From assembly GCA_032433765.1 (NCBI GenBank), contig JAVIAB010000073.1, positions 54,163,787-54,227,786 of the forward strand: a DNA stretch of 64,000 nt. Direction: 5' to 3'. Of the stretch, positions 5,041 through 36,280 are shown piece after piece. This DNA is from Megaustenia siamemsis (taxonomy: Eukaryota; Mollusca; Gastropoda; Stylommatophora; Ariophantidae). The notes below the pieces were generated by a model. That model ran no database searches and had not been told where the DNA came from. It saw nothing but the letters and a program-made list of their open reading frames with translations. Numbering within the stretch: the stretch's first letter is position 1; each line of letters starts with the position of its first letter. Made by a program: the position numbers and the translations under genes.

Positions 5041-6815
5041 TAATTTACTGTGAATCTCTTTTGTTGTTGTTGTAGGTGTAGTGTTGATCATGAATGCTTT
5101 GACATGTCTGTTGTCTGATTTGTTTGAGCTTCTATTATGTGTTGTAATGCTTTTATTGTTGGTCCTACTATCGGGCGTCTACAGAAGGTGTGTTCCTCGG
5201 TTTTCTCGTGGGTTTTCGGTGCACAGCTGGCAGCGGTCTACGTGTGGTTGTACTGGTGTCATGTTATAAATCAGCCTGTAGGTGACCTCTTTGGCTCTTG
5301 GCTTGATGTCCGCTTGATGCAGGTTTTTAAAAGTGGTTCTGAAGTTCAAAGTTTTGTAGAGTTAAGTAGGTGTAACTCCATTTGATTTTACTTTGGAGTG
5401 AAGGTTCCTGCTGCTTGACGAGCTGCTTGTGTTTTGTGATGCATCAGGCGGACGTTTGCTACAAGGATTGGACGCAGATCTTGTAGATGTCTCGTGTTTT
5501 GTGATGCATCAGGCGGTCGTTTGCTACAGGGGTTGGACGCAGATCTTGTAGATGTCTCGTGTTTTGTGATGCATCAGGCGGTCGTTTGCTACAAGGGTTG
5601 GACGCAGATCTTGTAGATGTCTCGTGTTTTGTGATGCATCAGGTGGTCGTTTGCTACAGGGGTTGGACGCAGATCTTGTAGATGTCTCGTGTTTTGTGAT
5701 GCATCAGGCGGTCGTTTGTTACAAGGGTTGGACGCAGATCTTGTAGATGTCTCGTGTTTTGTGATGCATCAGGTGGTCGTTTGCTACAGGGGTTGGACGC
5801 AGATCTTGTAGATGTCTCGTGTTTTGTGATGCATCAGGTGGTCGTTTGCTACAGGGGTTGGACGTAGATCTTGTAGATGCCTCGTGTTTTGTGATGCATC
5901 AGGTGGTCGTTTGCTACAGGGGTTGGACGTAGATCTTGTAGATGTCTCGTGTTTTGTGATGCATCAGGCGGTCGTTTGCTACAGGGGTAGGACGCAGATC
6001 TTGTAGATGGACGGCATTGTCTAGAAGTGATGCGGTTTGTCGTTGCTTAGTTTTTATTTTTTTTCATTTTAATAATCTTAGGTCCATGTATAATGGGCGA
6101 AAGTATAGCGTTCCGAAAGGTGGATGATGCGACCCACATGGCTGATCCTGAGGGCTTTGACTTTTGTAGCGATGTCCTGATGTGAACTACTTCCTTCATG
6201 TTTGTCTTGGATGAGCATTTTGTGTTGTATCTTGTGAATTTTGTTACGGAAGACGAATTTGTTTGTTGATTTCCTTAATGTCGTCAAGGGGTGGATCAAA
6301 AACTATGGCCATGTAGATTAGGTTAGGAATGATGTACGTGTTTACTATAACACTACTTCCGAAGATGGTCGCCGTTTTGTGTTTGTATCGTTAGAGTGTA
6401 ATGGTGCTCTGTGTGATTTGACCCATGTGGGTTTGTGTATTCCAGGGAGCTGATGGAAGATGATGCCGTACACTTTCATGACGTTGACCGGGGTCATTTC
6501 TCGGTGGCAATCCACTTTGTTCTTCCACCTGACAATTCCCATGTTGGACGATTTTTGGGCGTTAATGTTGGCTCCGCTTCCGGTTCCGAAATCCATGAAC
6601 GTTTTGATGATGTGGCATATTGTTTCGGTGTTCCTTGGGAAGAAAATTGTGTCATCGGCGCACACTATAAATTTCTTTTCGCCATCACCTGGTGTGAAAG
6701 TGCCTCTGATGGTGCCGTCTTGTCGGATTTTCTCCAGCAGAGGCTCAATGGCTAGGACGTTGAGTGGCTGTGAGAGGGGGCATCCTTGTCTCACTGATCG
6801 GGTCAGTTGAGTAGT
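5041..6815 (-). pseudogene. Tx1-like LINE 3' half, minus strand
   Basis: Read leftwards from the minisatellite: VRQGCPLSQPLNVLAIEPLLEKI (about 6805-6735), GTFTPGDGEKKF, the RT palm motif VCADDTIFFPRN (Y to C in YADDT, about 6665-6630), GSGANINAQKS, MGIVRWKNKVD, then KVKALRISHVGRI near 6155-6115. A degraded C-terminal zinc motif CQLC...EEHT lies near 5235-5180. A 65-bp minisatellite interrupts the coding part at 5430-6010. Tx1-like LINEs end in a CCHC-type C-terminal motif, which this matches. Frameshifts and the repeat make it non-functional. Confidence 0.75.
5430..6010. repeat. 65-bp minisatellite, about 9 copies
   Basis: The 65-bp unit contains GTGATGCATCAGGCGGTCG and GGACGCAGATCTTGTAGATG. 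Successive GATGCATCAG cores are 65 bp apart (5438, 5503 and so on). Copies differ by a few substitutions. It sits inside the LINE C-terminal region, and 65 is not a multiple of three, so it destroys the frame. Confidence 0.9.
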
Positions 6816-9800
6816 GGTGACAGGGAGCATCCTTGTCTCACTGATCGGGTCAGTTGAGTAGTGGTGACAGGGAGCATCCTTGTCTACTGATCGGGTCAGT
6901 TGAGTAGCTGTGATAGGGGGCATCCTTGTCTCACTGATCGGGTCAGTTGAGTAGCTGTGATAGGGGGCATCCTTGTCTCACTGATCGGGTCAGTTGAGTA
7001 GTGGTGACAGGGGGCATCCTTGTCTAACTGATTGGGTCAGTTGAGTAGTGGTGACAGGGAGCATCCTTGTCTAACTGATCGGGTCAGTTGAGTAGTGGTG
7101 ACAGGGAGCATCCATGTCTCACTGATCGGGTCAGTTGAGTAGTGGGGACAGAGAGCATCCTTGTCTCACTGATTGGGTCAGTTGAGTAGTGGTGACAGGG
7201 AGCATCCTTGTCTCAATGATCGGGTCAGTTGAGTAGTGGTGACAGGGAGCATCCTTGTCTCACTGATCGGGTCAGTTGAGTAGTGGTAACAGGGAGCATC
7301 CTTGTCTCAATGATCGGGTCAGTTGAGTAGTGGTGACAGGGGGCATCATTGTCTCACTGATTGGGTCAGTTGAGTAGTGGTGACAGGGAGCATCCTTGTC
7401 TCACTGATCGGGTCAGTTGAGTAGTGGTGACAGACAGCATCCTTGTTTCACTGATTGGGTCAGTTGAGTAGTGGTGACAGGGAGCATCCGTGTCTCACTG
7501 ATCGGGTCAGTTGAGTAGTGGTGACAGAGAGCATCCTTGTCTCACTGATCGGGTCAGTTGAGTAGTGGTGACAGGGAGCATCCTTGTCTCACTGATTGGA
7601 TCAGTTGAGTAGTGGTGACAGGGAGCATCCTTGTCTGACTGATTGGGTCAGTTGAGTAGTGGTGACAGAGAGCATCCTTGTCTCACTGATCGGGTCAGTT
7701 GAGTAGTGGTGACAGGGGGCATCCTTGTCTAACTGCTAACTGATCGGGTTAGTTGAGTAGTGGTGACAGGGAGCATCCATGTCTCACTGATCGGGTCAGT
7801 TGAGTAGTGGGGACAGAGAGCATCCTTGTCTCACTGATTGGGTCAGATGAGTAGTGGTGACAGGGAGCATCCTTGTCTCAATGATCGGGTCAGTTGAGTA
7901 GTGGTGACAGGGAGCATCCTTGTCTCACTGATCGGGTCAGTTGAGTAGTGGTGACAGGGAGCATCCTTGTCTCAATGATCGGGTCAGTTGAGTAGTGGTG
8001 ACAGGGGGCATCCTTGTCTCACTGATTGGGTCAGTTGAGTAGTGGTGACAGGGAGCATCCTTGTCTCACTGATCGGGTCAGTTGAGTAGTGGTGACAGAC
8101 AGCATCCTTGTTTCACTGATTGGGTCAGTTGAGTAGTGGTGACAGGGAGCATCCGTGTCTCACTGATCGGGTCAGTTGAGTAGTGGTGACAGAGAGCATC
8201 CTTGTCTCACTGATCGGGTCAGTTGAGTAGTGGTGACAGGGAGCATCCTTGTCTCACTGATTGGATCAGTTGAGTAGTGGTGACAGGGAGCATCCTTGTC
8301 TGACTGATTGGGTCAGTTGAGTAGTGGTGACAGAGAGCATCCTTGTCTCACTGATCGGGTCAGTTGAGTAGTGGTGACAGGGGGCATCCTTGTCTAACTG
8401 ATCGGGTCAGTTGAGTAGTGGTGACAGGGAGCATCCTTGTCTCACTGATTGGGTCAGTTGAGTAGTGGTGACAGGGAGCATCCTTGTCTCACTGATCGGG
8501 TCAGTTGAGTAGTGGTGACAGGGAGCATCCATGTCTCACTGATCGGGTCAGTTGAGTAGTGGTGACAGGGAGCATCCTTGTCTCACTGATTGGGTTAGTT
8601 GAGTAGTGGTGACAGGGAGCATCCATGTCTCACTGATCGGGTCAGTTGAGTAGTGGTGACAGGGAGCATCCTTGTCTCACTGATCGGGTCAGTTGAGTAG
8701 TGGTGACAGGGAGCATCCTTGTTTCACTGATTGGGTCAGTTGAGTAGTGGTGACAGGGAGCATCCTTGTCTCACTGATTGGATCAGTTGAGTAGTGGTGA
8801 CAGGGAGCATCCTTGTCTGACTGATTGGGTCAGTTGAGTAGTGGTGACAGAGAGCATCCTTGTCTCACTGATCGGGTCAGTTGAGTAGTGGTGACAGGGG
8901 GCATCCTTGTCTAACTGATCGGGTCAGTTGAGTAGTGGTGACAGGGAGCATCCTTGTCTCACTGATTGGGTCAGTTGAGTAGTGGTGACAGGGAGCATCC
9001 TTGTCTCACTGATCGGGTCAGTTGAGTAGTGGTGACAGGGAGCATCCATGTCTCACTGATCGGGTCAGTTGAGTAGTGGTGACAGGGAGCATCCTTGTCT
9101 CACTGATTGGGTTAGTTGAGTAGTGGTGACAGGGAGCATCCATGTCTCACTGATCGGGTCAGTTGAGTAGTGGTGACAGGGAGCATCCTTGTCTCACTGA
9201 TCGGGTCAGTTGAGTAGTGGTGACAGGGAGCATCCTTGTTTCACTGATTGGGTCAGTTGAGTAGTGGTGACAGGGAGCATCCTTGTCTCACTGATTGGGT
9301 TAGTTGAGTAGTGGTGACAGGGAGCATCCTTGTCTCACTGATTGGGTCAGTTGAGTAGTGGTGACAGGGAGCATCCTTGTCTCACTGATTGGGTCAGGGA
9401 GCATTCTTGTCTACTGATCGGGTCAGTTGAGTAGTGGTGACAGGGAGCATCCTTGTCTCACTGATCGGGTCAGTTGAGTAGTGGTGACAGGGAGCATCCT
9501 TGTCTACTGATCGGGTCAGTTGAGTAGTGGTGACAGGGAGTATCCTTGTCTCACTGATCGGGTCAGTTGAGCTGTGGTGACACGGAGCATCCTTGTCTCA
9601 CTGATCGGGTCAGTTGAGCAGTGGTGACAGGGAGCATCCTTGTCTCACTGATCGGGTCAGTTGAGTAGTGGTGACAGGGAGCATCCTTGTTTCACTGATC
9701 GGGTCAGTTGAGCAGTGGTGACAGGGAGCATCCTTGTCTCACTGATCGGGTCAGTTGAGTAGTGGTGACAGGGAGCATCCTTGTTTCACTGATCGGGTCA

Positions 9801-10552
9801 GTTGAGTAGTGGGGACAGGGAGCATCCTTGTCTCACTGATCGGGTCAGTTGAGTAGTGGTGACAGGGAGCATCCTTGTCTACTGATCGGGTCAGTTGAGT
9901 AGTGGTGACAGGGAGTATCCTTGTCTCACTGATCGGGTCAGTTGAGCTGTGGTGACACGGAGCATCCTTGTCTCACTGATCGGGTCAGTTGAGCAGTGGT
10001 GACAGGGAGCATCCTTGTCTCACTGATCGGGTCAGTTGAGCAGTGGTGACAGGGAGCATCCTTGTCTCACTGATCGGGTCAGTTGAGTAGTGGTGACAGG
10101 GAGCATCCTTGTTTCACTGATCGGGTCAGTTGAGCAGTGGGGACAGGGAGCATCCTTGTCTCACTGATCGGGTCATTTGAGTAGTGGTGACAGGGAGCAT
10201 CCTTGTCTCACTGATCGGGTCAGTTGAGTAGTGGTGACAGGGAGCATCCTTGTCTCACTGATCGGGTGAGTTGAGTAGTGGTGACAGGGAGCATTCTTGT
10301 CTAACTGATCGGGTCAGTTGAGTAGTGATGACAGGTAGCATCCTTGTCTAACTGATCGGGTCAGTTGAGTAGTGGTGACAGGGAGCATCCTTGTCTAACT
10401 GATCGGGTCAGTTGAGTAGTGGTGACAGGGAGCATCCTTGTCTCACTGATCGGGTCAGTTGAGTAGTTGTGACAGGGAGCATCCTTGTCTCACTGATCGG
10501 GTCAGTTGAGTAGTTGTGACAGGGAGCATCCTTGTCTCACTGATCGGGTGAG
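6782..10552. repeat. 47-bp minisatellite, about 80 copies
   Basis: The unit is GGGAGCATCCTTGTCTCACT + GATCGGGTCAGTTGAGTAGT + GGTGACA (47 bp). Variants include CTAACT, ACTGATTGGG, GGGGGC and GAGAGC. Higher-order structure is visible: a block of about 14 units near 7108 recurs near 7772, and an 11-unit block near 8391 recurs 517 bp later near 8908. The reverse complement of the unit contains the LINE RT sequence for VRQGC, so the array grew from RT codons. Confidence 0.95.
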
Positions 10553-10555
10553 TGT

Positions 10556-12123
10556 GAAGACGAACTGACTACAGAGCAACTCTTAGGAAACAGTCAAGAC
10601 AACTCCATAGCAGGCACACTCATACCAGGGAAAGGAGAACAAAATCTGTTAGCCTACGCCGATGACACTGCTTTCTTTCCATCAACCACTAGATCAATAG
10701 ACAACATCCTCAGCGCCTTCCCAGAGTTTGGGAAGGGCAGCGGGGCACAAATAAATATAGAGAACTCTTTTATTATGGGTATAGCCAGGTGGAAGAGCAA
10801 AGCGGACTTTCCCCTCAGCCCCAACACCGGTCACCAACTTAAAACTATACGGGATAACATATCTATGCAACCCAAATAAAACACACAAACCAACATGGCA
10901 GAACCTAGTCACAAAAATAACAGACATGCTACAGAGATACAAATACAAAACATCAACAATTTTTGGCCGGAATATCATAGCATACACATACATCATCCCC
11001 AAATTGATTTACACAGCCACAGCCTTCGACCCACCGCAATCAACAATCAAAGAGATAAAGAAACTGATAAGAACCTTTGTATTTGGCCACACAATACACA
11101 GCATAAAACAAAAAACACAGATACAGCACAAAAGACAGGGAGGGATCTCACTACAGGACATACACACAAAAATAAAAGCTCTCAGAATAAATCACATAAG
11201 TCGCATCATCAAATAACCAGACAACCACACCTTGCACACTACTACATGGGGCTGAGATTAACCAGGTTCAGAAAACTTAATACATTGCCTCACCATTTCG
11301 GCACCACACCCAGATATTACCAAGCAAGTCTACAGGCCATCCAAGGACATGACAGTTTATTACACCAAGGGACAAACAACATCTACAAACACCTAATTAA
11401 ACAACAAGCACCTTCACTAAATCACAGAAACAAGAGAGGCCAAAAGTACTTGCTCACAAACTACACCTGCATTTTCTCAAACCTCCACAATCCAAAACAT
11501 TGCCCCCAAAGCGAGGAAGGTCACATATAGACTCATATATAACATGACACCCATTACAGCGAGTGAGGTCACATACAGACATATAACATGACACCCATTA
11601 CAGCGAGGGAGGTCACATACAGACATATAACACGACACCCATTACAGCGAGGGAGGTCACATACAGACATATATAACATGACACCCATTACAACGAGGGA
11701 GGTCACATACAGACATATATAACATGACACCCATTACAGCGAGGGAGGTCACATACAGACATATAACACGACACCCATTACAGCGAGGGAGGTCACATAC
11801 AGGCATATAACATGACACCCACCACAGCGAGACCAACCCACAGATTAAGACGGACACCCCGATGTCCCCTCTGCAGACAAAAAATTCAAGAAACAGAAGA
11901 GCACCTATTCTATAGATGCAGTACAATCATACCGGCGAGAATGGCACTGCAACAGATACTAAAATTACACACAACACAAAAAGTCGACACATACAGATTT
12001 ATTATGCTTAACACACTGCCAAAAACAACAACACAAGATATCTTTACACAATTACTTATACTTCTATCAGAATACAGACATACAATAAGGGCCTGCAGGA
12101 ATGAAGCTATGTACGAATGTTAG
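10556..12123 (+). pseudogene. Tx1-like LINE 3' half, plus strand
   Basis: Starting right at the minisatellite edge: EQLLGNSQDNSIAGTLIPGKGEQN, the RT palm motif LLAYADDTAFFPS (about 10645-10685), GSGAQIN, MGIARWKSKADFPL, then in another frame a thumb/connection region with FGRNIIAYTYIIPKLIYTA and GGISLQDIHTKIKALRINHISRI (about 10965-11215). The C-terminal zinc motif CPLCRQKIQETEEHLFYRC (C-x2-C...H-x4-C type) is at about 11863-11925. The RNA-facing C-terminus ends at 12120 with a stop. At least one frameshift plus a 44-bp minisatellite disrupt it. Confidence 0.8.
11516..11825. repeat. 44- to 46-bp minisatellite inside LINE coding sequence
   Basis: CACCCATTACAGCGAGGGAG + GTCACATACAGACATATAAC repeats with spacings of 44, 44 and 46 bp (starts at 11548, 11592, 11636, 11682). 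The unit corresponds to LINE codons for VTYR-IYNMTP, which also occur unrepeated in the LINE ends at 5.2 kb and 16.4 kb. Confidence 0.85.
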
Positions 12124-19199: not shown

Positions 19200-19995
19200 T
19201 AACACAGTAAGCCGCTGTTATATTCACGGTCTCATTGCTGAAGGGAAATGCTGTTATACAATGGAAACAGGATATTCTTTTAAAATACGTCTTCGGTAAT
19301 GATAGCAAATATACTGAAGAAGTTATTCAACAATTTGTGTAGAAATGTCCAAACTCACAAGTCTCTCACCGCAATGAGGCTATGACTTTGATTGACAAGT
19401 TTCGTGCTACGGATAGTGTTGTAGATGCATACGGATCTGGAGGGCCTTCAACTTCAGAAGACACAGAACTTGATATGCAAACCAGAATTACAATGAGCCC
19501 TAATAAATCTTTAAGGTGGTTGTCTCAACATGCAAACTTTTCCAATGAATACCGTCCTCAAGGTTATGAAGTGTTAGCTGCACTATCGTCCTTACAGATT
19601 AATTCAATCGTCTTAAATACATGCAAGTGATTGTGAATCCAGATTGAACTACTGCATGTGGTTTCAGAACCTTATCTCTGAACAAGGTGATGAAGTCCTT
19701 GACGTGACATTCTTCACTAAGAGGCACGGTTTCATCTCTCCGGTTGCGTCAACAAGTAGGAACAACCGTATGTAGAGCAGTAAAAAAAAAACCCGCATGA
19801 ATTACATCAAGTACCGCTTTACGTTCAGAAAGTCGTTTGTGGATAATTGGGAAACATTTTTTTCAATGCAAAAATCAAGGCAGAACATGACCGTACTTTA
19901 ATGCTGGAATCATTCATAGCTCACCTTACAGAGCGGGAAATTAAAGAAACTCGGTTTCGGCAGGATGGGGCAACATCACACACAGCCGCAACAAC
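19200..19995 (+). pseudogene. Mariner-like DDE transposase, 5' part
   Basis: The N-terminal DNA-binding part is visible as KYTEEVIQQFV, SHRNEAMTLIDKFRATDSVV, GGPSTSED and TRITMSPNKSLRWLSQ (about 19310-19540). Degraded frames follow, with EARFHLSG-VN, and the run FRQDGATSHTAATT ends at 19995. The QDGATxHTA block is a hallmark of a large mariner-like DDE family. A stop replaces the aspartate usually found before EARFHLSG, so a catalytic residue is lost. The gene continues at 28585, after the palindromic insertion. Confidence 0.8.
19990..19995. other. Left 6-bp target-site duplication (AACAAC)
   Basis: AACAAC directly precedes the AG that opens the palindrome. The same six bases follow its CT end at 28585-28590. 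Confidence 0.85.
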
Positions 19996-20209
19996 AGTAG
20001 TAGTATAGGTGGCTGTGAACTCAACAGAAAAGTGGAATAACATGCACCGAAATACAATAGATTTGGCACCGACTTTGCACCGACTTTGCACCAAAACGGT
20101 GCCAAAAAAAAAAAAAAAAATATTTTTTTTTTCGAATTCGCGATTTTTTCGAACTTCATAATTTTTTTTTTTGGGGGGAATTTTTTTTTGGTGTTCGTCA
20201 GTTTGTCGA

Positions 20210-20640
20210 AATGGTTCACTGAGAGCTTAACTCAGGTAAATTCAAAAGACTCGGTGCTAATCCGGTGATCGCCTCTCGTTGTGTGTTAGATGAAAATGAA
20301 AGAGTATTTTAAAAGAGTATATTTGTGAAAGTAAACAGAATTATTTAAAAAATATGTATTTGTGAAAGTAAACTCAGAATTATTAAAAATAATAAAAAAA
20401 AAAAGTCTCCCTTCAGGATTCGAACACGGGTCTACTACGTGACAGGCAACATGTAAAAAAAATGCTGACAAGCAATAACATTGAAAGGTTAGTTTTGTCG
20501 AACGGTCTCCTGTGTTTCTGAGAGCTTAACCGCAGGTAAATTCAATAGAGACTCGGTGCTAATCCGGTGATCGTCGCTCCGTGTCCGGTGATCGCCTCGC
20601 TCGTGTTAGAAATTTGTGAAAGAGTATTTTAAAAGAGTAT
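20210..20640 (+). repeat. Subterminal direct repeats in the left arm
   Basis: GAGAGCTTAAC--CAGGTAAATTCAA followed by ACTCGGTGCTAATCCGGTGA occurs at about 20220-20270 and again at 20520-20570. Each copy is followed by GAAAGAGTATTTTAAAAGAG. The mirrored copies lie at about 27925-28345 in the right arm. Internal direct repeats near the ends fit a terminal region that binds element proteins, but that is inference. Confidence 0.6.
20395..20450 (-). other. tRNA-like B-box fragment in the left arm
   Basis: On the minus strand GTGTTCGAATCC, preceded by GTAGTAGACCC and followed by a T run, resembles the T-arm half of a tRNA-derived SINE. The mirror copy is at about 28115-28175. No A-box is visible, so it is probably a fragment. 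Confidence 0.35.
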
Positions 20641-21449
20641 GTGATAAATAAAAAATATGTTTCAAAACGTTAAGAAATATAGTTAAATGTGATAAAACTG
20701 ATTTTAAAAAAAGGCGAAATAATAAAAACTATGAAAAAAATAAGTTAACATACTGACGGAAAACTGTATGTTAAGTCAAGAAACTGGAATGACATGGCAG
20801 CTTTTGTTGACTGGGCTAGTGGTACTTGAGGAATGCTATTGTTAGGAAAAATCGCTTATTATTGTCAAGGAATCGTGGTCATTGTTAGGAAAATATGCTG
20901 ACGGTCATTGTTAGGCATGTAACTGAAACTCCGTGTTTAGAGTTAAAGTTAGGTAGAGGCATAATTATGAAAAATCAATATTTAAAAAAAAACGTAAAAT
21001 GAAGGGAAAATTTAAAATTATAGGCGATCTCGTAACTGATTGGGTCGCGGATCTTGCACTACATTTTTTTAGTGCCACCCTCAACACCATCATCCCTTCA
21101 TGTCCTATCATCATCATCATACCACACAAAGTTTCAAACCGATTATTATTCGCCGGCGGTGGGCATGTGAGGTGGAGGGGCGGGTAATAGGCAACATGTA
21201 AAACGAGTTGGTTGACACAGGTGTGTTATTGTAGTATCGCTAACATCATGTGCCAGGATAGCGGTTCTTGGGGAAAGATTATTGGTCGTGTGTGTTATCG
21301 CTACCAACATCATCATGTGTCGGTTAGTAAGGTGTGCTAATATTAAATAGTGACGCTCGCTCTTTCTCATTCAATGTAAAGCAAAACAAAATTCTATATT
21401 TCACAATTTTATTAATACATCATATATTACTGTCCGGATGCTGATAATT

Positions 21450-21656
21450 TTAACCGTCTGGGTTTCCTACACAACCGCCCTCCATTTTGACAAAACCTTG
21501 ATCAAAGCTGGAATAGGTAATCGGTGACTTTGCTGAAACATCCTGGGCATCCACACTGGCTGCCGGAGCTGTCGTCTGATTAACAAGAGTGAGGTCCCCT
21601 TGGTTAACAGAAAAGGGCGTGTAGTTGATGTTACCATAAGCGTTTTCGAGACTGCC
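21450..21656 (-). pseudogene. Unidentified 3' coding end, left-arm copy
   Basis: Mirror image of 26911-27117. It encodes 68 residues in one frame with a stop and then an AATAAA signal towards the element's outer end. Confidence 0.4.
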
Positions 21657-21659
21657 TTA

Positions 21660-21960
21660 ACGCCATGTGCCACCCTCAACACCATCATCCCTTCATGTCC
21701 TATCATCATCATGTACCACCCTCAACACCATCATCCCTTCATGTCCTATCATCATCATGTGCCACCCTCAACACCATCATCCCTTCATGTCCTATCATCA
21801 TCATGTGCCACCCTCAACACTAGCATCATGTGCCACCCTCAACACTAGCATCTTGTGCCTCAACATCACCCTTCATGTCCTATCATCATCATGTGCCACC
21901 CTCAACACCATCATCAGCCCTTCAGGTCCTATCATCAAACCACACAAAGTATCAACCAGC
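21660..21960 (+). repeat. 46-bp minisatellite in the left arm
   Basis: ACCCTCAACACCATCATCCC + TTCATGTCCTATCATCATCA repeats every 46 bp (starts at 21672 and 21718) with shorter variants after 21800. Scattered copies recur at 21070 and at 22900-23080. The mirror is at about 26605-26905. Confidence 0.85.
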
Positions 21961-22171
21961 GAAATTCTCTCTCTCTCTCTCTGTCTCTCTCACATTCATG
22001 GTAAACCAAAACAAAATAAATCACTAAGATTTTACCACCATAACACACAAATTTAGGGTCATATTTAAAAAAGTCGACCTTAAAACCATACAAATCTACT
22101 CCCATACTCATAAAAGTTAGACACATCAAACAAATAATTACTTCCAAACTCCAAAAAAGTTAGACCAAATC

Positions 22172-22455
22172 ACGCCTCGATCGTTCTCTAACATTGCCTC
22201 GATCGTTCTTTAACATTGCCTCGATCGTTCTTTAACATTGCCTCCAGCGTTCTTTAACATTGCCTCCAGCGTTCTGTAACATTGCCTCCAGCGTTCTGTA
22301 ACATTGCCTCCAGCGTTCTGTAACATTGCCTCCAGCGTTCTGTAACATTGCCTCGATCGTTCTGTAACATTGCCTCGATCGTTCTTTAACATTACCTCGA
22401 GCGTTCTCTAACATTGCCTCCAGCGTTCTCTAACATTCCCTTGCTCGTTCTCTAA
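22172..22455 (+). repeat. 22-bp minisatellite in the left arm
   Basis: Units such as AACATTGCCTCCAGCGTTCT plus two bases repeat about 12 times, in two main variants (CCAGCG and CGATCG). The 22-bp unit reads through all frames without stops on one strand, so apparent peptides here are repeat artefacts. The mirror copy is at 26112-26395. Confidence 0.9.
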
Positions 22456-23087
22456 CATTTTCATTAGTTGGAGTCTTTGTGTTGCCTTCTTAGTGAGATT
22501 CTCTACGTGTTTCTTCAGGCTCAATTGTCAGTCTAGTTGTATTCCTAAAAAAATCTACTTCCATACTGATACTAGTTAGACACATCGATCAGATAGTTAC
22601 ATCCAAATCGCAAACATTTTACCCCAGAACACAAAAATTTAGGGTCATACTCAAAAAGTCGACCTTAAAACCATACAAATCTACTCCCATACTCATAAAA
22701 GTTAGACACATCAAACAGATAATTACTTCCAAACTCATAAAAGTTAGACACATCAAACAGATAATTACTTCCAAACTCCAAAACCCCCTTCCTATCATCA
22801 TCATGTGCCACCCTCACTCTCTCTCTCTCTCTCTATCGCATATCCAAGCTAACTCAAGTCAAATAAAAATCATCACCAAGCCACACAAATTGACACATCA
22901 TCACCATGTGCCACCCTCAACACTATCATCATCATCATCATCCACCCTCATCACCCCTTCCTATCATCATCATGTGCCACCCTCAACACTATCATCATGT
23001 ACCACCCTCATCACTATCATCATCATGCGCCACCCTCAACACCAGCCCTTCATGTCCTATCATCATGTGCCACCCTCAACATCAAAC

Positions 23088-23229
23088 CTTCCGGCTTGGA
23101 CGGAGGAACTGTTTTCCATCAGTCGAGTAAATGAAACAAACCCCGTTACATATGTGTTGAAAGACGATAAGGGCGATGAGATAGAGGGGTCATTCTACAC
23201 ACCGAAAATTCAAAAAGTTGGAGACAAAC
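23088..23229 (+). pseudogene. Polinton-like integrase C-terminal fragment, left-arm copy
   Basis: One open frame reads PAWTEELFSISRV, then PVTYVLKDDKGDEIEGSFYT and PKIQKVGDK. The pattern W-EE-F-I, TY-LKD--G-EI-G-FY, LQKV-like is the C-terminal (chromo/SH3-like) tail found in integrases encoded by Maverick/Polinton elements and related sequences. The catalytic DDE core is absent, and minisatellite sequence lies on both sides. The mirror copy is at 25338-25479. Confidence 0.6.
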
Positions 23230-23284
23230 TCATCCTCCCTCCATGTCCTATCATCAAGCCACACAAAGTATCAACCAGCGAAAT

Positions 23285-23322
<38 letters not shown>

Positions 23323-23526
23323 GCTCTGTCTCTCTCTCACATTCATGATAAACCAAACCAAAATAGGCTCATATTAAAAAAGTCGACCTAAAACCGTAAA
23401 ATATTCCACTACAACACAGACCGCTAGACTGAACAGTACTATGAAAACAAACGTCCGTGAATCAAGCGCGCTTATAACACGAAGTCTCACATCCGACTAG
23501 TTTAAATATAATCTGGTAAATAAAAG

Positions 23527-23902
23527 TTAGGAGGCAAGGGCAGAAACCTAGGAGGTAAGGGCAGAAACCAAAGAGGCAAGGTCAGAAAACAAGGAGGGAA
23601 GGGCAGAAACCAAAGAGGCATGGTCAGAAATCTAGGAAGCTGTGTTAGAAAACAAGGAGGCGAGGGCAGAAACCTAGGAGGGAAGGTCAGAAACCTAGGA
23701 GGCGAGGTCAGAAACCTAGGAGGCGAGGTCAGAAACCTAGGAGGCGAGGTCAGAAACCTAGGAGGCAAGGTGAGAAAACAAGGAGGGAAGGTCAGAAATC
23801 TAAGAGGCGAGGGCAGAAACCAAAGAGGCAAGGTCAGAAATCTAGGAAGCTGTGTTAGAAAACAAGGAGGCGAGGGCAGAAACCAAAGAGGCAAGGTCAG
23901 AC
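23527..23902 (+). repeat. 21-bp minisatellite in the left arm
   Basis: GGAGGCAAGGTCAGAAACCTA-type units of 21 bp repeat about 18 times. The period is a multiple of three, so both strands stay open (RNLGGEV-type and FLTSPPR-type peptides). I treat these as repeat artefacts. The mirror copy is at 24665-25040. Confidence 0.9.
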
Positions 23903-24225
23903 ATTTTCATTATTTGGAGTCTTTGTATTACCTTCTTAGTGAGATTCTCTACGTGTTTCTTCAAAAAGCTACTCTCATTCTCATACTAGTTAGACACATC
24001 GAACCGTTCGTTATTTCTAAAGCCAAAAAAAAAAAAGTTTGGCCAAATCACTAACAATTTACCCACAGAACAAAATAAATATAGACTCATATTAAAAAAG
24101 TCGACCTCAAAACCATAAAAATCTACTCCCACACTCATCTAAAAGTTACACCAAAACCGCACGAGATTTGCACCGTGCAAAAACATGCACAAGTTTGACA
24201 CGCGCACCAGTTTGGCACAATGCAC

Positions 24226-24341
24226 CAATAGACATCCCCATACCAAAAAAAATTTACTTAAAAATCACTTTTATGATTGTTACGCCCCTTACGAATGCTG
24301 ATTGTTACGCCCCTTACGAATGCTGATTGTTACGCCCGAAT
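24226..24341. other. Unpaired centre of the palindrome with 25-bp repeats
   Basis: The 116-bp spacer holds about 2.6 copies of a 25-bp unit (GATTGTTACGCCCCTTACGA + ATGCT). This is the only part of the element without a mirror copy and marks where the inverted duplication was joined. Confidence 0.8.
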
Positions 24342-25242
24342 GTGCATTGTGCCAAACTGGTGCGCGTGTCAAACTTGTGCATGTTTTTGCACGGTGCAAA
24401 TCTCGTGCGGTTTTGGTGTAACTTTTAGATGAGTGTGGGAGTAGATTTTTATGGTTTTGAGGTCGACTTTTTTAATATGAGTCTATATTTATTTTGTTCT
24501 GTGGGTAAATTGTTAGTGATTTGGCCAAACTTTTTTTTTTGGCTTTAGAAATAACGAACGGTTCGATGTGTCTAACTAGTATGAGAATGAGAGTAGCTTT
24601 TTGAAGAAACACGTAGAGAATCTCACTAAGAAGGTAATACAAAGACTCCAAATAATGAAAATGTCTGACCTTGCCTCTTTGGTTTCTGCCCTCGCCTCCT
24701 TGTTTTCTAACACAGCTTCCTAGATTTCTGACCTTGCCTCTTTGGTTTCTGCCCTCGCCTCTTAGATTTCTGACCTTCCCTCCTTGTTTTCTCACCTTGC
24801 CTCCTAGGTTTCTGACCTCGCCTCCTAGGTTTCTGACCTCGCCTCCTAGGTTTCTGACCTCGCCTCCTAGGTTTCTGACCTTCCCTCCTAGGTTTCTGCC
24901 CTCGCCTCCTTGTTTTCTAACACAGCTTCCTAGATTTCTGACCATGCCTCTTTGGTTTCTGCCCTTCCCTCCTTGTTTTCTGACCTTGCCTCTTTGGTTT
25001 CTGCCCTTACCTCCTAGGTTTCTGCCCTTGCCTCCTAACTTTTATTTACCAGATTATATTTAAACTAGTCGGATGTGAGACTTCGTGTTATAAGCGCGCT
25101 TGATTCACGGACGTTTGTTTTCATAGTACTGTTCAGTCTAGCGGTCTGTGTTGTAGTGGAATATTTTACGGTTTTAGGTCGACTTTTTTAATATGAGCCT
25201 ATTTTGGTTTGGTTTATCATGAATGTGAGAGAGAGACAGAGC

Positions 25243-25280
<38 letters not shown>

Positions 25281-25337
25281 ATTTCGCTGGTTGATACTTT
25301 GTGTGGCTTGATGATAGGACATGGAGGGATGATGAGT

Positions 25338-25479
25338 TTGTCTCCAACTTTTTGAATTTTCGGTGTGTAGAATGACCCCTCTATCTCATCGCCCTTATCG
25401 TCTTTCAACACATATGTAACGGGGTTTGTTTCATTTACTCGACTGATGGAAAACAGTTCCTCCGTCCAAGCCGGAAGGT
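25338..25479 (-). pseudogene. Polinton-like integrase C-terminal fragment, right-arm copy
   Basis: Mirror of 23088-23229. A Leu/Ile difference after KVGDKLI is one of the few changes between the arms. Confidence 0.6.
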
Positions 25480-26910
25480 TTGATGTTGAGGGTGGCACAT
25501 GATGATAGGACATGAAGGGCTGGTGTTGAGGGTGGCGCATGATGATGATAGTGATGAGGGTGGTACATGATGATAGTGTTGAGGGTGGCACATGATGATG
25601 ATAGGAAGGGGTGATGAGGGTGGATGATGATGATGATGATAGTGTTGAGGGTGGCACATGGTGATGATGTGTCAATTTGTGTGGCTTGGTGATGATTTTT
25701 ATTTGACTTGAGTTAGCTTGGATATGCGATAGAGAGAGAGAGAGAGAGAGTGAGGGTGGCACATGATGATGATAGGAAGGGGGTTTTGGAGTTTGGAAGT
25801 AATTATCTGTTTGATGTGTCTAACTTTTATGAGTTTGGAAGTAATTATCTGTTTGATGTGTCTAACTTTTATGAGTATGGGAGTAGATTTGTATGGTTTT
25901 AAGGTCGACTTTTTGAGTATGACCCTAAATTTTTGTGTTCTGGGGTAAAATGTTTGCGATTTGGATGTAACTATCTGATCGATGTGTCTAACTAGTATCA
26001 GTATGGAAGTAGATTTTTTTAGGAATACAACTAGACTGACAATTGAGCCTGAAGAAACACGTAGAGAATCTCACTAAGAAGGCAACACAAAGACTCCAAC
26101 TAATGAAAATGTTAGAGAACGAGCAAGGGAATGTTAGAGAACGCTGGAGGCAATGTTAGAGAACGCTCGAGGTAATGTTAAAGAACGATCGAGGCAATGT
26201 TACAGAACGATCGAGGCAATGTTACAGAACGCTGGAGGCAATGTTACAGAACGCTGGAGGCAATGTTACAGAACGCTGGAGGCAATGTTACAGAACGCTG
26301 GAGGCAATGTTAAAGAACGCTGGAGGCAATGTTAAAGAACGATCGAGGCAATGTTAAAGAACGATCGAGGCAATGTTAGAGAACGATCGAGGCGTGATTT
26401 GGTCTAACTTTTTTGGAGTTTGGAAGTAATTATCTGTTTGATGTGTCTAACTTTTATGAGTATGGGAGTAGATTTGTATGGTTTTAAGGTCGACTTTTTT
26501 TAATATGACCCTAAATTTGTGTGTTATGGTGGTAAAATCTTAGTGATTTATTTTGTTTTGGTTTACCATGAATGTGAGAGAGACAGAGAGAGAGAGAGAG
26601 AATTTCGCTGGTTGATACTTTGTGTGGTTTGATGATAGGACCTGAAGGGCTGATGATGGTGTTGAGGGTGGCACATGATGATGATAGGACATGAAGGGTG
26701 ATGTTGAGGCACAAGATGCTAGTGTTGAGGGTGGCACATGATGCTAGTGTTGAGGGTGGCACATGATGATGATAGGACATGAAGGGATGATGGTGTTGAG
26801 GGTGGCACATGATGATGATAGGACATGAAGGGATGATGGTGTTGAGGGTGGTACATGATGATGATAGGACATGAAGGGATGATGGTGTTGAGGGTGGCAC
26901 ATGGCGTTAA

Positions 26911-27117
26911 GGCAGTCTCGAAAACGCTTATGGTAACATCAACTACACGCCCTTTTCTGTTAACCAAGGGGACCTCACTCTTGTTAATCAGACGACAGCT
27001 CCGGCAGCCAGTGTGGATGCCCAGGATGTTTCAGCAAAGTCACCGATTACCTATTCCAGCTTTGATCAAGGTTTTGTCAAAATGGAGGGCGGTTGTGTAG
27101 GAAACCCAGACGGTTAA
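26911..27117 (+). pseudogene. Unidentified 3' coding end with polyadenylation signal, right-arm copy
   Basis: One frame of 68 codons reads SLENAYGNINYTPFSVNQG, then VDAQDVSAKSPITYSSFDQG and ends FVKMEGGCVGNPDG with TAA at 27115-27117. AATAAA follows at 27154. Even residue composition and the stop-plus-signal layout suggest the true C-terminus of an element gene reading towards the terminus. I do not recognise the protein; a Polinton structural protein is possible but unsupported. Confidence 0.4.
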
Positions 27118-28584
27118 AATTATCAGCATCCGGACAGTAATATATGATGTATTAATAAAATTGTGAAATATAGAATTTTGTTTTGCTTTACATTGAATGA
27201 GAAAGAGCGAGCGTCACTATTTAATATTAGCACACCTTACTAACCGACACATGATGATGTTGGTAGCGATAACACACACGACCAATAATCTTTCCCCAAG
27301 AACCGCTATCCTGGCACATGATGTTAGCGATACTACAATAACACACCTGTGTCAACCAACTCGTTTTACATGTTGCCTATTACCCGCCCCTCCACCTCAC
27401 ATGCCCACCGCCGGCGAATAATAATCGGTTTGAAACTTTGTGTGGTATGATGATGATGATAGGACATGAAGGGATGATGGTGTTGAGGGTGGCACTAAAA
27501 AAATGTAGTGCAAGATCCGCGACCCAATCAGTTACGAGATCGCCTATAATTTTAAATTTTCCCTTCATTTTACGTTTTTTTTAAATATTGATTTTTCATA
27601 ATTATGCCTCTACCTAACTTTAACTCTAAACACGGAGTTTCAGTTACATGCCTAACAATGACCGTCAGCATATTTTCCTAACAATGACCACGATTCCTTG
27701 ACAATAATAAGCGATTTTTCCTAACAATAGCATTCCTCAAGTACCACTAGCCCAGTCAACAAAAGCTGCCATGTCATTCCAGTTTCTTGACTTAACATAC
27801 AGTTTTCCGTCAGTATGTTAACTTATTTTTTTCATAGTTTTTATTATTTCGCCTTTTTTAAAAATCAGTTTTATCACATTTAACTATATTTCTTAACGTT
27901 TTGAAACATATTTTTTATTTATCACATACTCTTTTAAAATACTCTTTCACAAATTTCTAACACGAGCGAGGCGATCACCGGACACGGAGCGACGATCACC
28001 GGATTAGCACCGAGTCTCTATTGAATTTACCTGCGGTTAAGCTCTCAGAAACACAGGAGACCGTTCGACAAAACTAACCTTTCAATGTTATTGCTTGTCA
28101 GCATTTTTTTTACATGTTGCCTGTCACGTAGTAGACCCGTGTTCGAATCCTGAAGGGAGACTTTTTTTTTTATTATTTTTAATAATTCTGAGTTTACTTT
28201 CACAAATACATATTTTTTAAATAATTCTGTTTACTTTCACAAATATACTCTTTTAAAATACTCTTTCATTTTCATCTAACACACAACGAGAGGCGATCAC
28301 CGGATTAGCACCGAGTCTTTTGAATTTACCTGAGTTAAGCTCTCAGTGAACCATTTCGACAAACTGACGAACACAAAAAAAAATTCCCCCAAAAAAAAAT
28401 TCCCCCCCCCAAAAAAAAATTATGAAGTTCGAAAAAATCGCGAATTCGAAAAAAAAAATATTTTTTTTTTTTTTTTTTTGGCACCGTTTTGGTGCAAAGT
28501 CGGTGCAAAGTCGGTGCCAAATCTATTGTATTTCGGTGCATGTTATTCCACTTTTCTGTTGAGTTCACAGCCACCTATACTACT

Positions 28585-28590
28585 AACAAC
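28585..28590. other. Right 6-bp target-site duplication (AACAAC)
   Basis: Matches 19990-19995. Counting one copy of the six bases keeps the transposase frame across the insertion point. Confidence 0.85.
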
Positions 28591-28860
28591 ATCACTTACT
28601 TATTAGGAAAGCGTATTTGGAAATCGCATTATTTCACTTGTAATCTGGCCTGCTCATTCACCAGACCTAACCCCGCCTAATTATTACCAGACCTAACCCC
28701 GCCTAATTATTATCTGTGGGGGTGAGCTGAAAAGAAATGTTTATCGAATATTCTGAAGACAGATAATGACCTGAAGGCAGAAATCGTCACCCAAAGACAA
28801 CAAATATCACCGGTCATTATCCAGCAGGTTTTTGTAGACAAACACCAGACATACCAAGAG
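28585..28860 (+). pseudogene. Mariner-like DDE transposase, 3' part
   Basis: In the frame that continues from 19995 this piece reads SLTY, a stop, then ESVFGNRIISLVIWPAHSPD and LTPPNYYLWGELKRNVY. SPDLTP-xYLWG holds the third acidic catalytic residue of this transposase family. A 28-bp local duplication (ACCAGACCTAACCCCGCCTA and on) at about 28655-28712 shifts the frame. Similarity fades by about 28860, where an RNase H LINE begins. Confidence 0.75.
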
Positions 28861-36241: not shown

Positions 36242-36280
36242 ATGTCCGGACGAGGAAAAGGAGAAAAAGTCAAATTATAA
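36242..36280 (+). other. Histone H2A-like start codons (unit 1)
   Basis: ATG TCC GGA CGA GGA AAA GGA GAA AAA GTC AAA then TTA TAA reads MSGRGKGEKVKL, stop. Animal H2A opens MSGRGKGGKVK, so ten of eleven residues agree. A TATATATAC box-like stretch lies about 30 bp upstream. Homologous starts are at 39146, 44102, 48924, 53747, 58570 and 62438. Confidence 0.5.

What the first reader, a model, noticed from the sequence alone, without database searches (positions are those of the whole stretch)
19990..28590. An 8.6-kb palindromic element with Polinton-type ends split a transposase gene
Seen: arms 19996-24225 and 24342-28584 are near-perfect inverted copies. The ends are AG...CT, and the flanks are the direct repeat AACAAC. 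The transposase block QDGATSHTAATT stops exactly at the left edge, and SLTY/VFGNRIIS resumes in the same frame at the right edge when one AACAAC is counted. Known: Polinton/Maverick elements make 6-bp TSDs, start with 5'-AG and have long inverted repeats. Inferred: this is a mobilised, fully palindromic Polinton derivative with no replication or capsid genes of its own. Elements that are almost all inverted repeat have been called foldback elements, but a Polinton-end foldback of this size is unfamiliar to me.
Basis: partly seen in the sequence, partly recalled or inferred. Interest (0 to 1): 0.9.

Follow-up and report, generated by a model that had tools for sequence, protein, structure and literature searches.

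The report
Palindromic hitch-hikers of Polinton transposons
This is one copy of a large family of mobile DNA elements that are almost perfect giant palindromes, carry the ends of virus-like Polinton transposons but none of their working genes, and seem to renew themselves by folding back and copying one half into the other.

Summary
In detail: 19996-28584 is an 8.6-kb palindrome (arms 99.3% identical, 116-bp spacer) with (AGT)3/(ACT)2 ends and a 6-bp duplication, AACAAC. The host genome shows what it is. The terminal 25-mer occurs 948 times (reversed control 0); 23 of 23 copies with both ends in hand have 6-bp duplications. Arms carry pieces of a Polinton integrase (98.6% nt) and a PC4-like gene that are open frames in a gene-bearing element with the same ends, L077. 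So it is a non-autonomous Polinton derivative; its spacer lies at roughly 430 loci (estimate). Two results point to mechanism. Arms evolve in concert: between two subfamilies, 219 differences are shared by both arms of a copy, 1 follows side, 9 are in one arm. Three of 68 listed spacer loci are palindromes with a moved centre and all or part of the old spacer mirrored. Fold-back copying in an extrachromosomal phase, with integration in trans, explains both; that step is inferred. No full-length polymerase gene was located. Six literature searches (listings partly capped) showed no such element.

The parts
19990..19995 (.). left target-site duplication AACAAC
28585..28590 (.). right target-site duplication AACAAC
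19996..24225 (+). left arm of the palindrome, 4230 bp
   Evidence: inverted alignment to the right arm
24342..28584 (-). right arm of the palindrome, 4243 bp
24226..24341 (.). central spacer, 116 bp, with a 25-bp repeat x2.6; gives orientation; a 38-mer of it has 629 matches (up to 3 mismatches, several per locus) in the host genome
19996..20004 (+). terminal (AGT)3; Maverick-type end motif with one extra repeat unit
   Evidence: motif described in PMC8097293 section 7
28579..28584 (-). terminal (ACT)2, i.e. (AGT)2 read inward
19996..20106 (+). terminal region 89-90% identical to both ends of the gene-bearing element L077
23091..23229 (+). piece of a Polinton integrase gene (between core and chromodomain), 98.6% nt identical over 139 bp to the L077 integrase gene
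25336..25474 (-). exact mirror copy of the integrase piece in the right arm
21469..21630 (-). piece of the PC4-like ORF of L077 (88% nt over 162 bp; 41/54 aa)
26937..27098 (+). exact mirror copy of the PC4-like piece in the right arm
22174..22459 (+). 22-bp minisatellite, 13 copies (mirrored at 26108-26393)
23528..23901 (+). 21-bp minisatellite, 17.8 copies (mirrored at 24664-25037)
19847..19995 (+). left part of the interrupted transposase-like pseudogene
28591..28759 (+). right part of the interrupted transposase-like pseudogene

Best explanation
The element is a non-autonomous, palindromic satellite of a Polinton/Maverick lineage that lives in the same host genome. Shown: it has the Polinton end motif and 6-bp target duplications, shares terminal sequence and gene pieces with gene-bearing elements, and end and spacer counts imply hundreds of loci. 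Shown: in the copies examined its two arms evolve together, although mutations that arise after insertion mostly stay in one arm. Inferred: new copies are made outside the chromosome by Polinton proteins acting in trans. The (AGT)n end serves as protein-primed origin. A strand that has copied one arm and the spacer folds back on itself and is copied back to the same terminus, or a snapped-back hairpin is repaired, so both arms come from one template. The Polinton integrase then inserts the molecule with a 6-bp duplication. The known parallel in logic is the snap-back or copy-back defective genome of viruses.
For: Ends and duplications: 23 of 23 copies with both ends in hand; (AGT)2//(ACT)2 is the commonest vertebrate Maverick end motif and its repetition is linked there to jumping-back in protein-primed replication (PMC8097293, section 7 and passages); an extra AGT at one end in 2 of 23 copies (this one and L059) fits that. 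Copy number: 948 end matches, control 0; 629 spacer matches, control 0. Descent: integrase piece 98.6% nt and PC4-like piece 88% nt to L077, which shares the terminal ~106 bp and whose genes are collinear with another Polinton, L003. Concerted arms: in 15 copies (30 arms, 3419 clean columns) 31 variable sites, 24 in a single arm, 7 shared, of which 5 are in both arms of every copy that has them, 2 are mixed and 0 are side-specific; a 17-bp indel agrees between arms in 15 of 15 copies (8.9 expected by random pairing). Between subfamilies: 219 copy-concordant, 1 side-concordant, 9 one-arm sites of 2603 clean columns (one copy of each). Re-centring: L069 (arms 4.77 kb including the old spacer, 99.87% over 4499 columns), L083 and L084. 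Exchange with gene-bearing elements: mosaic L076 and the mirrored polymerase-type piece in L082.
Against: No full-length polymerase gene was found: L077 shows none, and my genome search for it did not complete. No extrachromosomal DNA or transcript data exist here. The centre is conserved in the 15 copies and between the two subfamilies compared, so fold-back at random points cannot be the usual route; copying must normally preserve the spacer, or homogenisation is by repair of a hairpin. Of the 7 shared sites in the 15-copy set 2 are mixed, and two of the concordant ones (1837, 2659) are private to one copy, which would also fit occasional conversion after insertion. Homopolymer runs show no agreement between arms beyond random pairing (e.g. 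3 of 15 copies, 3.3 expected; 7 of 15, 8.3 expected), as expected if they change fast after insertion, but they give no support. Most indel blocks in that alignment are private to one arm. Several protein names of L077 (capsid, penton, PW) rest on gene order, not on profile hits.
Confidence: 0.72

Rival explanations
1. Arms are kept alike by ordinary gene conversion between inverted repeats in the chromosome, and the element moves by simple copying of the whole duplex.
For: Inverted repeats do convert (recalled), and two variants private to one copy are in both arms. In Galileo, repeats of one copy are 98-100% identical and repair from another copy is discussed as extending the repeats (PMC3573991, passages).
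Against: In 15 copies 24 variable sites are private to a single arm against 2 sites private to a copy and present in both arms, so conversion after insertion looks slower than mutation, while all but 1 of 220 differences that separate the two subfamilies or sides are homogenised. Mirrored spacers in L069, L083 and L084 are not produced by conversion that respects the old centre.
Confidence: 0.2
2. Foldback element of another superfamily (Mutator-like, P/Galileo or Drosophila FB type) that happens to have AG ends.
For: Overall anatomy, arms of tandem repeats, is that of foldback elements (PMC3573991 passages).
Against: 6-bp duplications in 23 of 23 copies, the (AGT)2 end motif, integrase and PC4-like pieces, and gene-bearing relatives with the same ends.
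Confidence: 0.03
3. Assembly artefact, for example an inverted chimera from a missed sequencing adapter.
For: Long perfect palindromes are a known artefact of some long-read methods (recalled).
Against: The palindrome stops exactly at target duplications with different flanks on each side, the same element recurs at many loci with different duplications, and arms differ by private mutations.
Confidence: 0.02
4. The palindrome works as a host-useful or self-limiting RNA hairpin: transcripts fold into long double-stranded RNA carrying integrase, PC4-like and polymerase pieces and silence the helper Polinton.
For: Each arm mirrors Polinton gene pieces, the integrase piece at 98.6% nt; L082 mirrors a polymerase-type piece.
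Against: No transcript or small-RNA data; pieces are short; a selfish satellite explains the same facts.
Confidence: 0.1

Closest known systems
Polinton/Maverick elements (polintoviruses)
   Same: 6-bp target duplications, (AGT)n termini, long terminal inverted repeats, shared gene pieces and terminal sequence with gene-bearing relatives in the same genome
   Different: No intact gene, 8.6 kb rather than 12.7-24.6 kb (intact vertebrate elements, PMC8097293), arms make up 98.6% of the element instead of repeats of 46-1447 bp
Foldback elements (FB, Galileo copies made only of repeats)
   Same: Almost all inverted repeat; arms built of tandem repeats; arms of one copy near-identical
   Different: [quoted passage not shown] duplication lengths of known foldback elements differ (recalled); here the ends, duplications and gene-bearing relatives are Polinton-type
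Snap-back / copy-back defective viral genomes
   Same: Self-complementary derivative that keeps one replication terminus at both ends and depends on a helper (recalled)
   Different: The copy-back genomes in the listing are of RNA viruses; here DNA copies sit in a chromosome set at hundreds of loci
ODIRA hairpin-capped inverted linear fragments in yeast (PMC10766183, abstract)
   Same: Template switching yields inverted linear DNA ending in native telomeres
   Different: Chromosomal fragments with telomeres, not a transposon with protein-primed ends

Membership tests
Polinton/Maverick | 6-bp target-site duplication | tested here: met
   23 of 23 copies with both ends in hand (L067 ambiguous because its flanks are a repeat)
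Polinton/Maverick | 5'-AG / (AGT)2 ... (ACT)2 termini | tested here: met
   motif from PMC8097293
Polinton/Maverick | retrovirus-like integrase gene | tested here: not met
   only a 139-bp piece in each arm; open frame of 356 aa in L077, same ends
Polinton/Maverick | protein-primed family B polymerase gene | tested here: not met
   none among the ORFs of the arm; polymerase-type pieces in L076 and L082, not confirmed by Pfam
Polinton/Maverick | capsid, ATPase and protease genes | tested here: not met
   none among the ORFs of the arm; candidates in L077
Non-autonomous derivative of a Polinton | shares termini and internal sequence with a gene-bearing Polinton of the same genome | tested here: met
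Non-autonomous derivative of a Polinton | mobilised in trans | tested here: inconclusive
   many copies with their own duplications imply it; no experiment
Foldback element | element consists almost only of long inverted repeats with internal tandem repeats | tested here: met
Drosophila FB / Galileo | target duplication length and transposase of that superfamily | tested here: not met
   6-bp duplications, Polinton-type integrase in relatives; FB and Galileo lengths recalled
Snap-back replicating genome | hairpin or inverted intermediate observed outside the chromosome | not testable with these tools
   only footprints: concerted arms and moved centres

The most novel reading that the evidence does not exclude
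A lineage of defective Polinton genomes, fixed in chromosomes, that replicate as self-complementary DNA: each cycle rewrites one arm from the other by fold-back copying, so a palindrome behaves as one hereditary unit, diversifies into subfamilies with the same centre, and now and then shifts its centre. It would be a DNA-transposon counterpart of copy-back defective viral genomes, and a record that Polintons replicate extrachromosomally.
Probability: 0.5. Interest if true: 0.88.

Novelty: new variant of a known kind. Interest (0 to 1): 0.8.

Why it matters
How Polintons replicate is inferred from their polymerase and ends, not observed, so far as I recall. A family whose two arms change together, with the extra AGT units and moved centres expected of protein-primed and fold-back copying, is sequence evidence for an extrachromosomal replication phase and makes it testable in one host. 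It also suggests that virus-like transposons can spawn long-lived satellites, as viruses spawn defective genomes, and offers one origin for foldback elements.

Tried and rejected
Polinton relatives in viral contigs: three scans with integrase queries and one with the terminal 18-mer found nothing; an internal 18-mer gave two contigs without a BLAST match to the window, probably chance. The terminal 18-mer was absent from genome contigs. The element has no BLAST match in the rest of the window.

The 68-residue piece at 21450-21656 matched designed ankyrin proteins in PDB (E 1.5e-6); rejected as chance because Pfam gave no ankyrin match and L077 shows it to be the tail of a PC4-like ORF. Protein searches for it found nothing.

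I asked whether the inner end of an arm is a relic of a second terminus because both are rich in GCAC; in direct orientation 20 of 300 shuffles and 8 of 500 background windows were as good or better, in inverted orientation 104 of 300 and 224 of 500, so it is dropped.

I took the 22.9-kb copy on C103 for the autonomous element; it is the 8.6-kb palindrome with a nested 14.3-kb insertion.

Left out of the 15-copy arm statistics: L059 (one arm lacks about 2 kb), L066 and L068 (one end in hand), L067 (rearranged), L069 (moved centre), L070/L072-L074 (nested insertion), and all copies fetched later. Only 12 of the 40 loci (L003-L014) were used.
Full report
1. The observation. The stretch 19996-28584 is an 8589-bp palindrome. 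Its arms, 19996-24225 and 24342-28584, align at 99.29% over 4248 columns. A global alignment shows 5 single-base substitutions and 8 length changes, mostly in A/T, T/G and CT runs. The 116-bp spacer between them is not mirrored in this copy and gives it an orientation. The ends read (AGT)3ATAGG on the left and (AGT)2ATAGG on the right, read inward. The flanks are the direct repeat AACAAC. Taking out the element and one AACAAC restores one frame through a decayed DDE-type gene; its Pfam match is weak (DDE_3, E 0.064, below cut-off) and it matches no PDB chain. Rfam has no match in the window at gathering score.

2. Contents of the arms. Arms are made of tandem repeats (22-bp and 21-bp minisatellites, a family of CCACCCTCAACACC repeats, CT runs) and internally repeated modules. 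Two pieces look coding. A piece of about 48 residues at 23083-23230 is 67% identical to P0001, a protein with integrase core and chromodomain, and lies between those domains. A 68-residue piece at 21450-21656 on the minus strand had no convincing match in Pfam, PHROGs or the protein database. Both lie as exact mirror copies in the right arm over the parts listed.

3. The host genome. The window lies in an unnamed assembly of 2.59 Gb in 155 contigs. The first 1.1 kb of the element gave 40 scored matches out of 2379 candidates, 94-100% identical, many of them as plus/minus pairs about 8.6 kb apart. The terminal 25-mer with up to 2 mismatches occurs 486 times forward and 462 times reverse; the reversed pattern occurs 0 times. 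Only the first 100 places were listed, all exact matches. Of these, 74 form 37 plus-then-minus pairs 5.3-11.2 kb apart and 26 are unpaired in the list (a partner with mismatches would not show there); no minus-then-plus neighbours lie within 12 kb. A 38-mer of the spacer, up to 3 mismatches, occurs 629 times, control 0. The 100 places listed collapse to 68 loci, which scales to about 430 loci (an estimate).

4. Target duplications. In 23 of 23 copies with both ends in hand a 6-bp duplication flanks the element: this copy, L051-L065, L067, L069/L071, L070/L072 and L075-L078. L067 lies in a repeat, so its duplication is ambiguous. L066 and L068 could not be judged because only one end was in hand; L079-L084 are probes of the centre only. 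The 23 duplications are 22 different sequences (GACATG occurs twice). Where an AGT unit belongs to the duplication it was counted there; two copies (this one and L059) then carry a third AGT unit at one end. In vertebrate Mavericks (AGT)2//(ACT)2 is the commonest end motif; 6-bp duplications are among the marks of intact elements, and the repeats are linked to jumping-back in protein-primed replication (PMC8097293: section 7 and passages read).

5. Gene-bearing relatives. Eight copies were chosen by their ends and size and read in whole (L075-L078) or in 1.5 kb at the centre (L079-L082). Four are palindromes (L075 decayed, L078, L079, L082), three are gene-bearing (L077, L080, L081) and one is a mosaic (L076). 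L077 (8824 bp, terminal repeats 923 bp at 98.9%) encodes an integrase with rve and chromodomain (E 7e-13 and 6e-6) and a PC4-like protein (E 1e-7); matches of an ATPase-type and an adenovirus-protease-type ORF are below Pfam cut-offs. Its ORFs are collinear with L003, a contig filed under an endosymbiont of the tubeworm Escarpia laminata that I take to be eukaryotic contamination. The names capsid, penton and PW rest on that order and on the order published for Mavericks, not on profile hits. L077 has no ORF that I can assign to a polymerase. A polymerase-type piece lies in L076; it is 35% identical to a stretch of L003 upstream of the ATPase, its DTDS motif is recalled as typical, and Pfam does not confirm it. 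The same piece is mirrored in both arms of L082. The integrase piece in the window arm is 98.6% identical over 139 bp to the L077 gene and 44 of 46 residues match. The second piece matches the PC4-like ORF of L077 at 88% nt over 162 bp and 41 of 54 residues. The terminal ~106 bp are 89-90% identical; beyond that the terminal repeats differ apart from a shared minisatellite. Descent from, and exchange with, this Polinton lineage is well supported.

6. Arms evolve in concert. Fifteen complete copies (this one, L051-L058, L060-L065) were oriented by the spacer and their 30 arms aligned: 3419 clean columns of 4352, 31 variable. The copies are close relatives: mean distance between arms of different copies is 3.3 of 3419. 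Of the 31 sites, 24 are seen in one arm only and 7 in two or more arms. In 5 of these 7 every copy that has the variant has it in both arms; 2 are mixed; none is side-specific. Among 113 indel blocks, a 17-bp indel agrees between arms in 15 of 15 copies (8.9 expected for random pairing), a 3-bp indel in 14 of 15 (7.8 expected) and a CT run in 12 of 15 (5.1 expected); homopolymer runs agree no better than random (e.g. 3 of 15, 3.3 expected; 7 of 15, 8.3 expected), and most other blocks are private to one arm. These 15 copies were found through similarity to this element, so they sample few subfamilies. The wider test is L078, a palindrome about 8% diverged with the same spacer. Against this copy, 2603 clean columns hold 219 differences shared by both arms of each copy, 1 that follows the side, and 9 confined to one arm. 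The two subfamilies have the same centre, yet arms within a copy stay alike. Mutations after insertion are not corrected at a comparable rate: in the 15-copy set there are 24 single-arm sites against 2 sites private to one copy but in both arms.

7. Moved centres. Of the 68 spacer loci listed, 3 hold the spacer in both orientations close together, and all 3 were read. L069 is part of a 10.0-kb palindrome whose arms (4.77 kb, 99.87% over the 4499 columns in hand) contain the usual arm, the spacer, and 306 bp more; the loop is now 435 bp. L083 runs through an arm and the spacer, a short way into the other arm, then turns back through the inverted spacer into the arm; L084 does the same from the other side, with part of the spacer mirrored (self-inverse at 98.3% and 96.0% over 1 kb; the outer ends of these two were not fetched). 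A rearrangement present at mirrored places in both arms must have been copied from one arm to the other. Such turns are what a template switch onto the strand's own copy would leave.

8. A second family. The copy at C103:24354863-24377747 carries a 14.3-kb insertion that is itself a palindrome (arms 95% over 6.6 kb) with ends AGTAGTAG..CTACTACT and the 6-bp duplication CACGAA. Palindromic Polinton-ended elements are thus not a single accident here.

9. How it most likely works. Shown: ends, duplications, copy counts, shared sequence with gene-bearing elements, concerted arms, moved centres. Inferred: Polinton proteins supplied in trans replicate the element from its (AGT)n ends outside the chromosome; a displaced or nascent single strand pairs with itself; copying back to the same end, or repair of the snapped-back hairpin, makes both arms from one template; integrase inserts the product. 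[quoted passage not shown] The chief rival is gene conversion in the chromosome; it sits badly with the single-arm mutations and does not explain mirrored spacers, but a mixture cannot be excluded.

10. Known kinds and novelty. It is Polinton-type by ends and duplications and foldback-type by anatomy. It is not itself a complete Polinton, because integrase, polymerase and capsid genes were looked for and not found in it. Galileo copies made only of long repeats are the nearest foldback precedent; there the repeats of one copy are 98-100% identical, and repair from another copy is discussed as extending repeats (PMC3573991, passages). Searches of the held library for Polinton with foldback, palindrome, non-autonomous, satellite or concerted evolution showed no such element among the titles and abstract starts listed: 7 of 7 papers, 10 of 10, 20 of 52, 15 of 21, 3 of 3, 10 of 30. 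Passages of PMC6431247 and PMC12368964 did not describe one. Subscription journals are largely not held, and the founding Polinton paper was not available. I rate it a new variant of a known kind.

Noticed in passing
G000:C103:24358362-24372637 (L073 362-8000, L074 1-6637): A second palindromic element, 14.3 kb, nested in a copy of the first: ends AGTAGTAG..CTACTACT, 6-bp duplication CACGAA, arms 95% identical; no Pfam match for the two ORFs tested.
   Followed up: partly
window 39510-64000: Tandem array of 4.8-kb units about 99% or more identical, with a 66-bp coding-like repeat and an open frame that reads like part of a reverse transcriptase (by eye).
   Followed up: no
window 6759-10557: Long 47-bp minisatellite (about 80 copies) next to LINE-like sequence (by eye).
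   Followed up: no
window 36242-36280: Short sequence resembling the start of a histone H4 gene (MSGRGKG..), then a stop.
   Followed up: no
G000:C105:31181738 (+) and C105:31717589 (-) (L066, L068): Two partial copies of the element in inverted orientation 535 kb apart, one ending at a run of N; could be a large inverted duplication or an assembly duplication.
   Followed up: no
L077 7505-8236 (+): PC4-like transcription coactivator encoded by a Polinton relative; its tail is one of the pieces carried by the palindromes.
   Followed up: partly
L076 (G000:C47:66441332-66448903): Mosaic between palindrome-type arm and gene-bearing Polinton pieces inside one 6-bp duplication, suggesting exchange before insertion.
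   Followed up: partly
L003-L014: Polinton-type integrase loci in contigs filed under bacterial genomes (e.g. endosymbiont of Escarpia laminata); probably eukaryotic contamination.
   Followed up: partly
window 19996-20212 and 24119-24552: GCAC/GTGC motifs cluster at the outer end and at the centre of the arms (5 and 7 per 217 bp against 0.8 background); possible protein-binding sites, but similarity of the two regions is not clearly above chance.
   Followed up: yes
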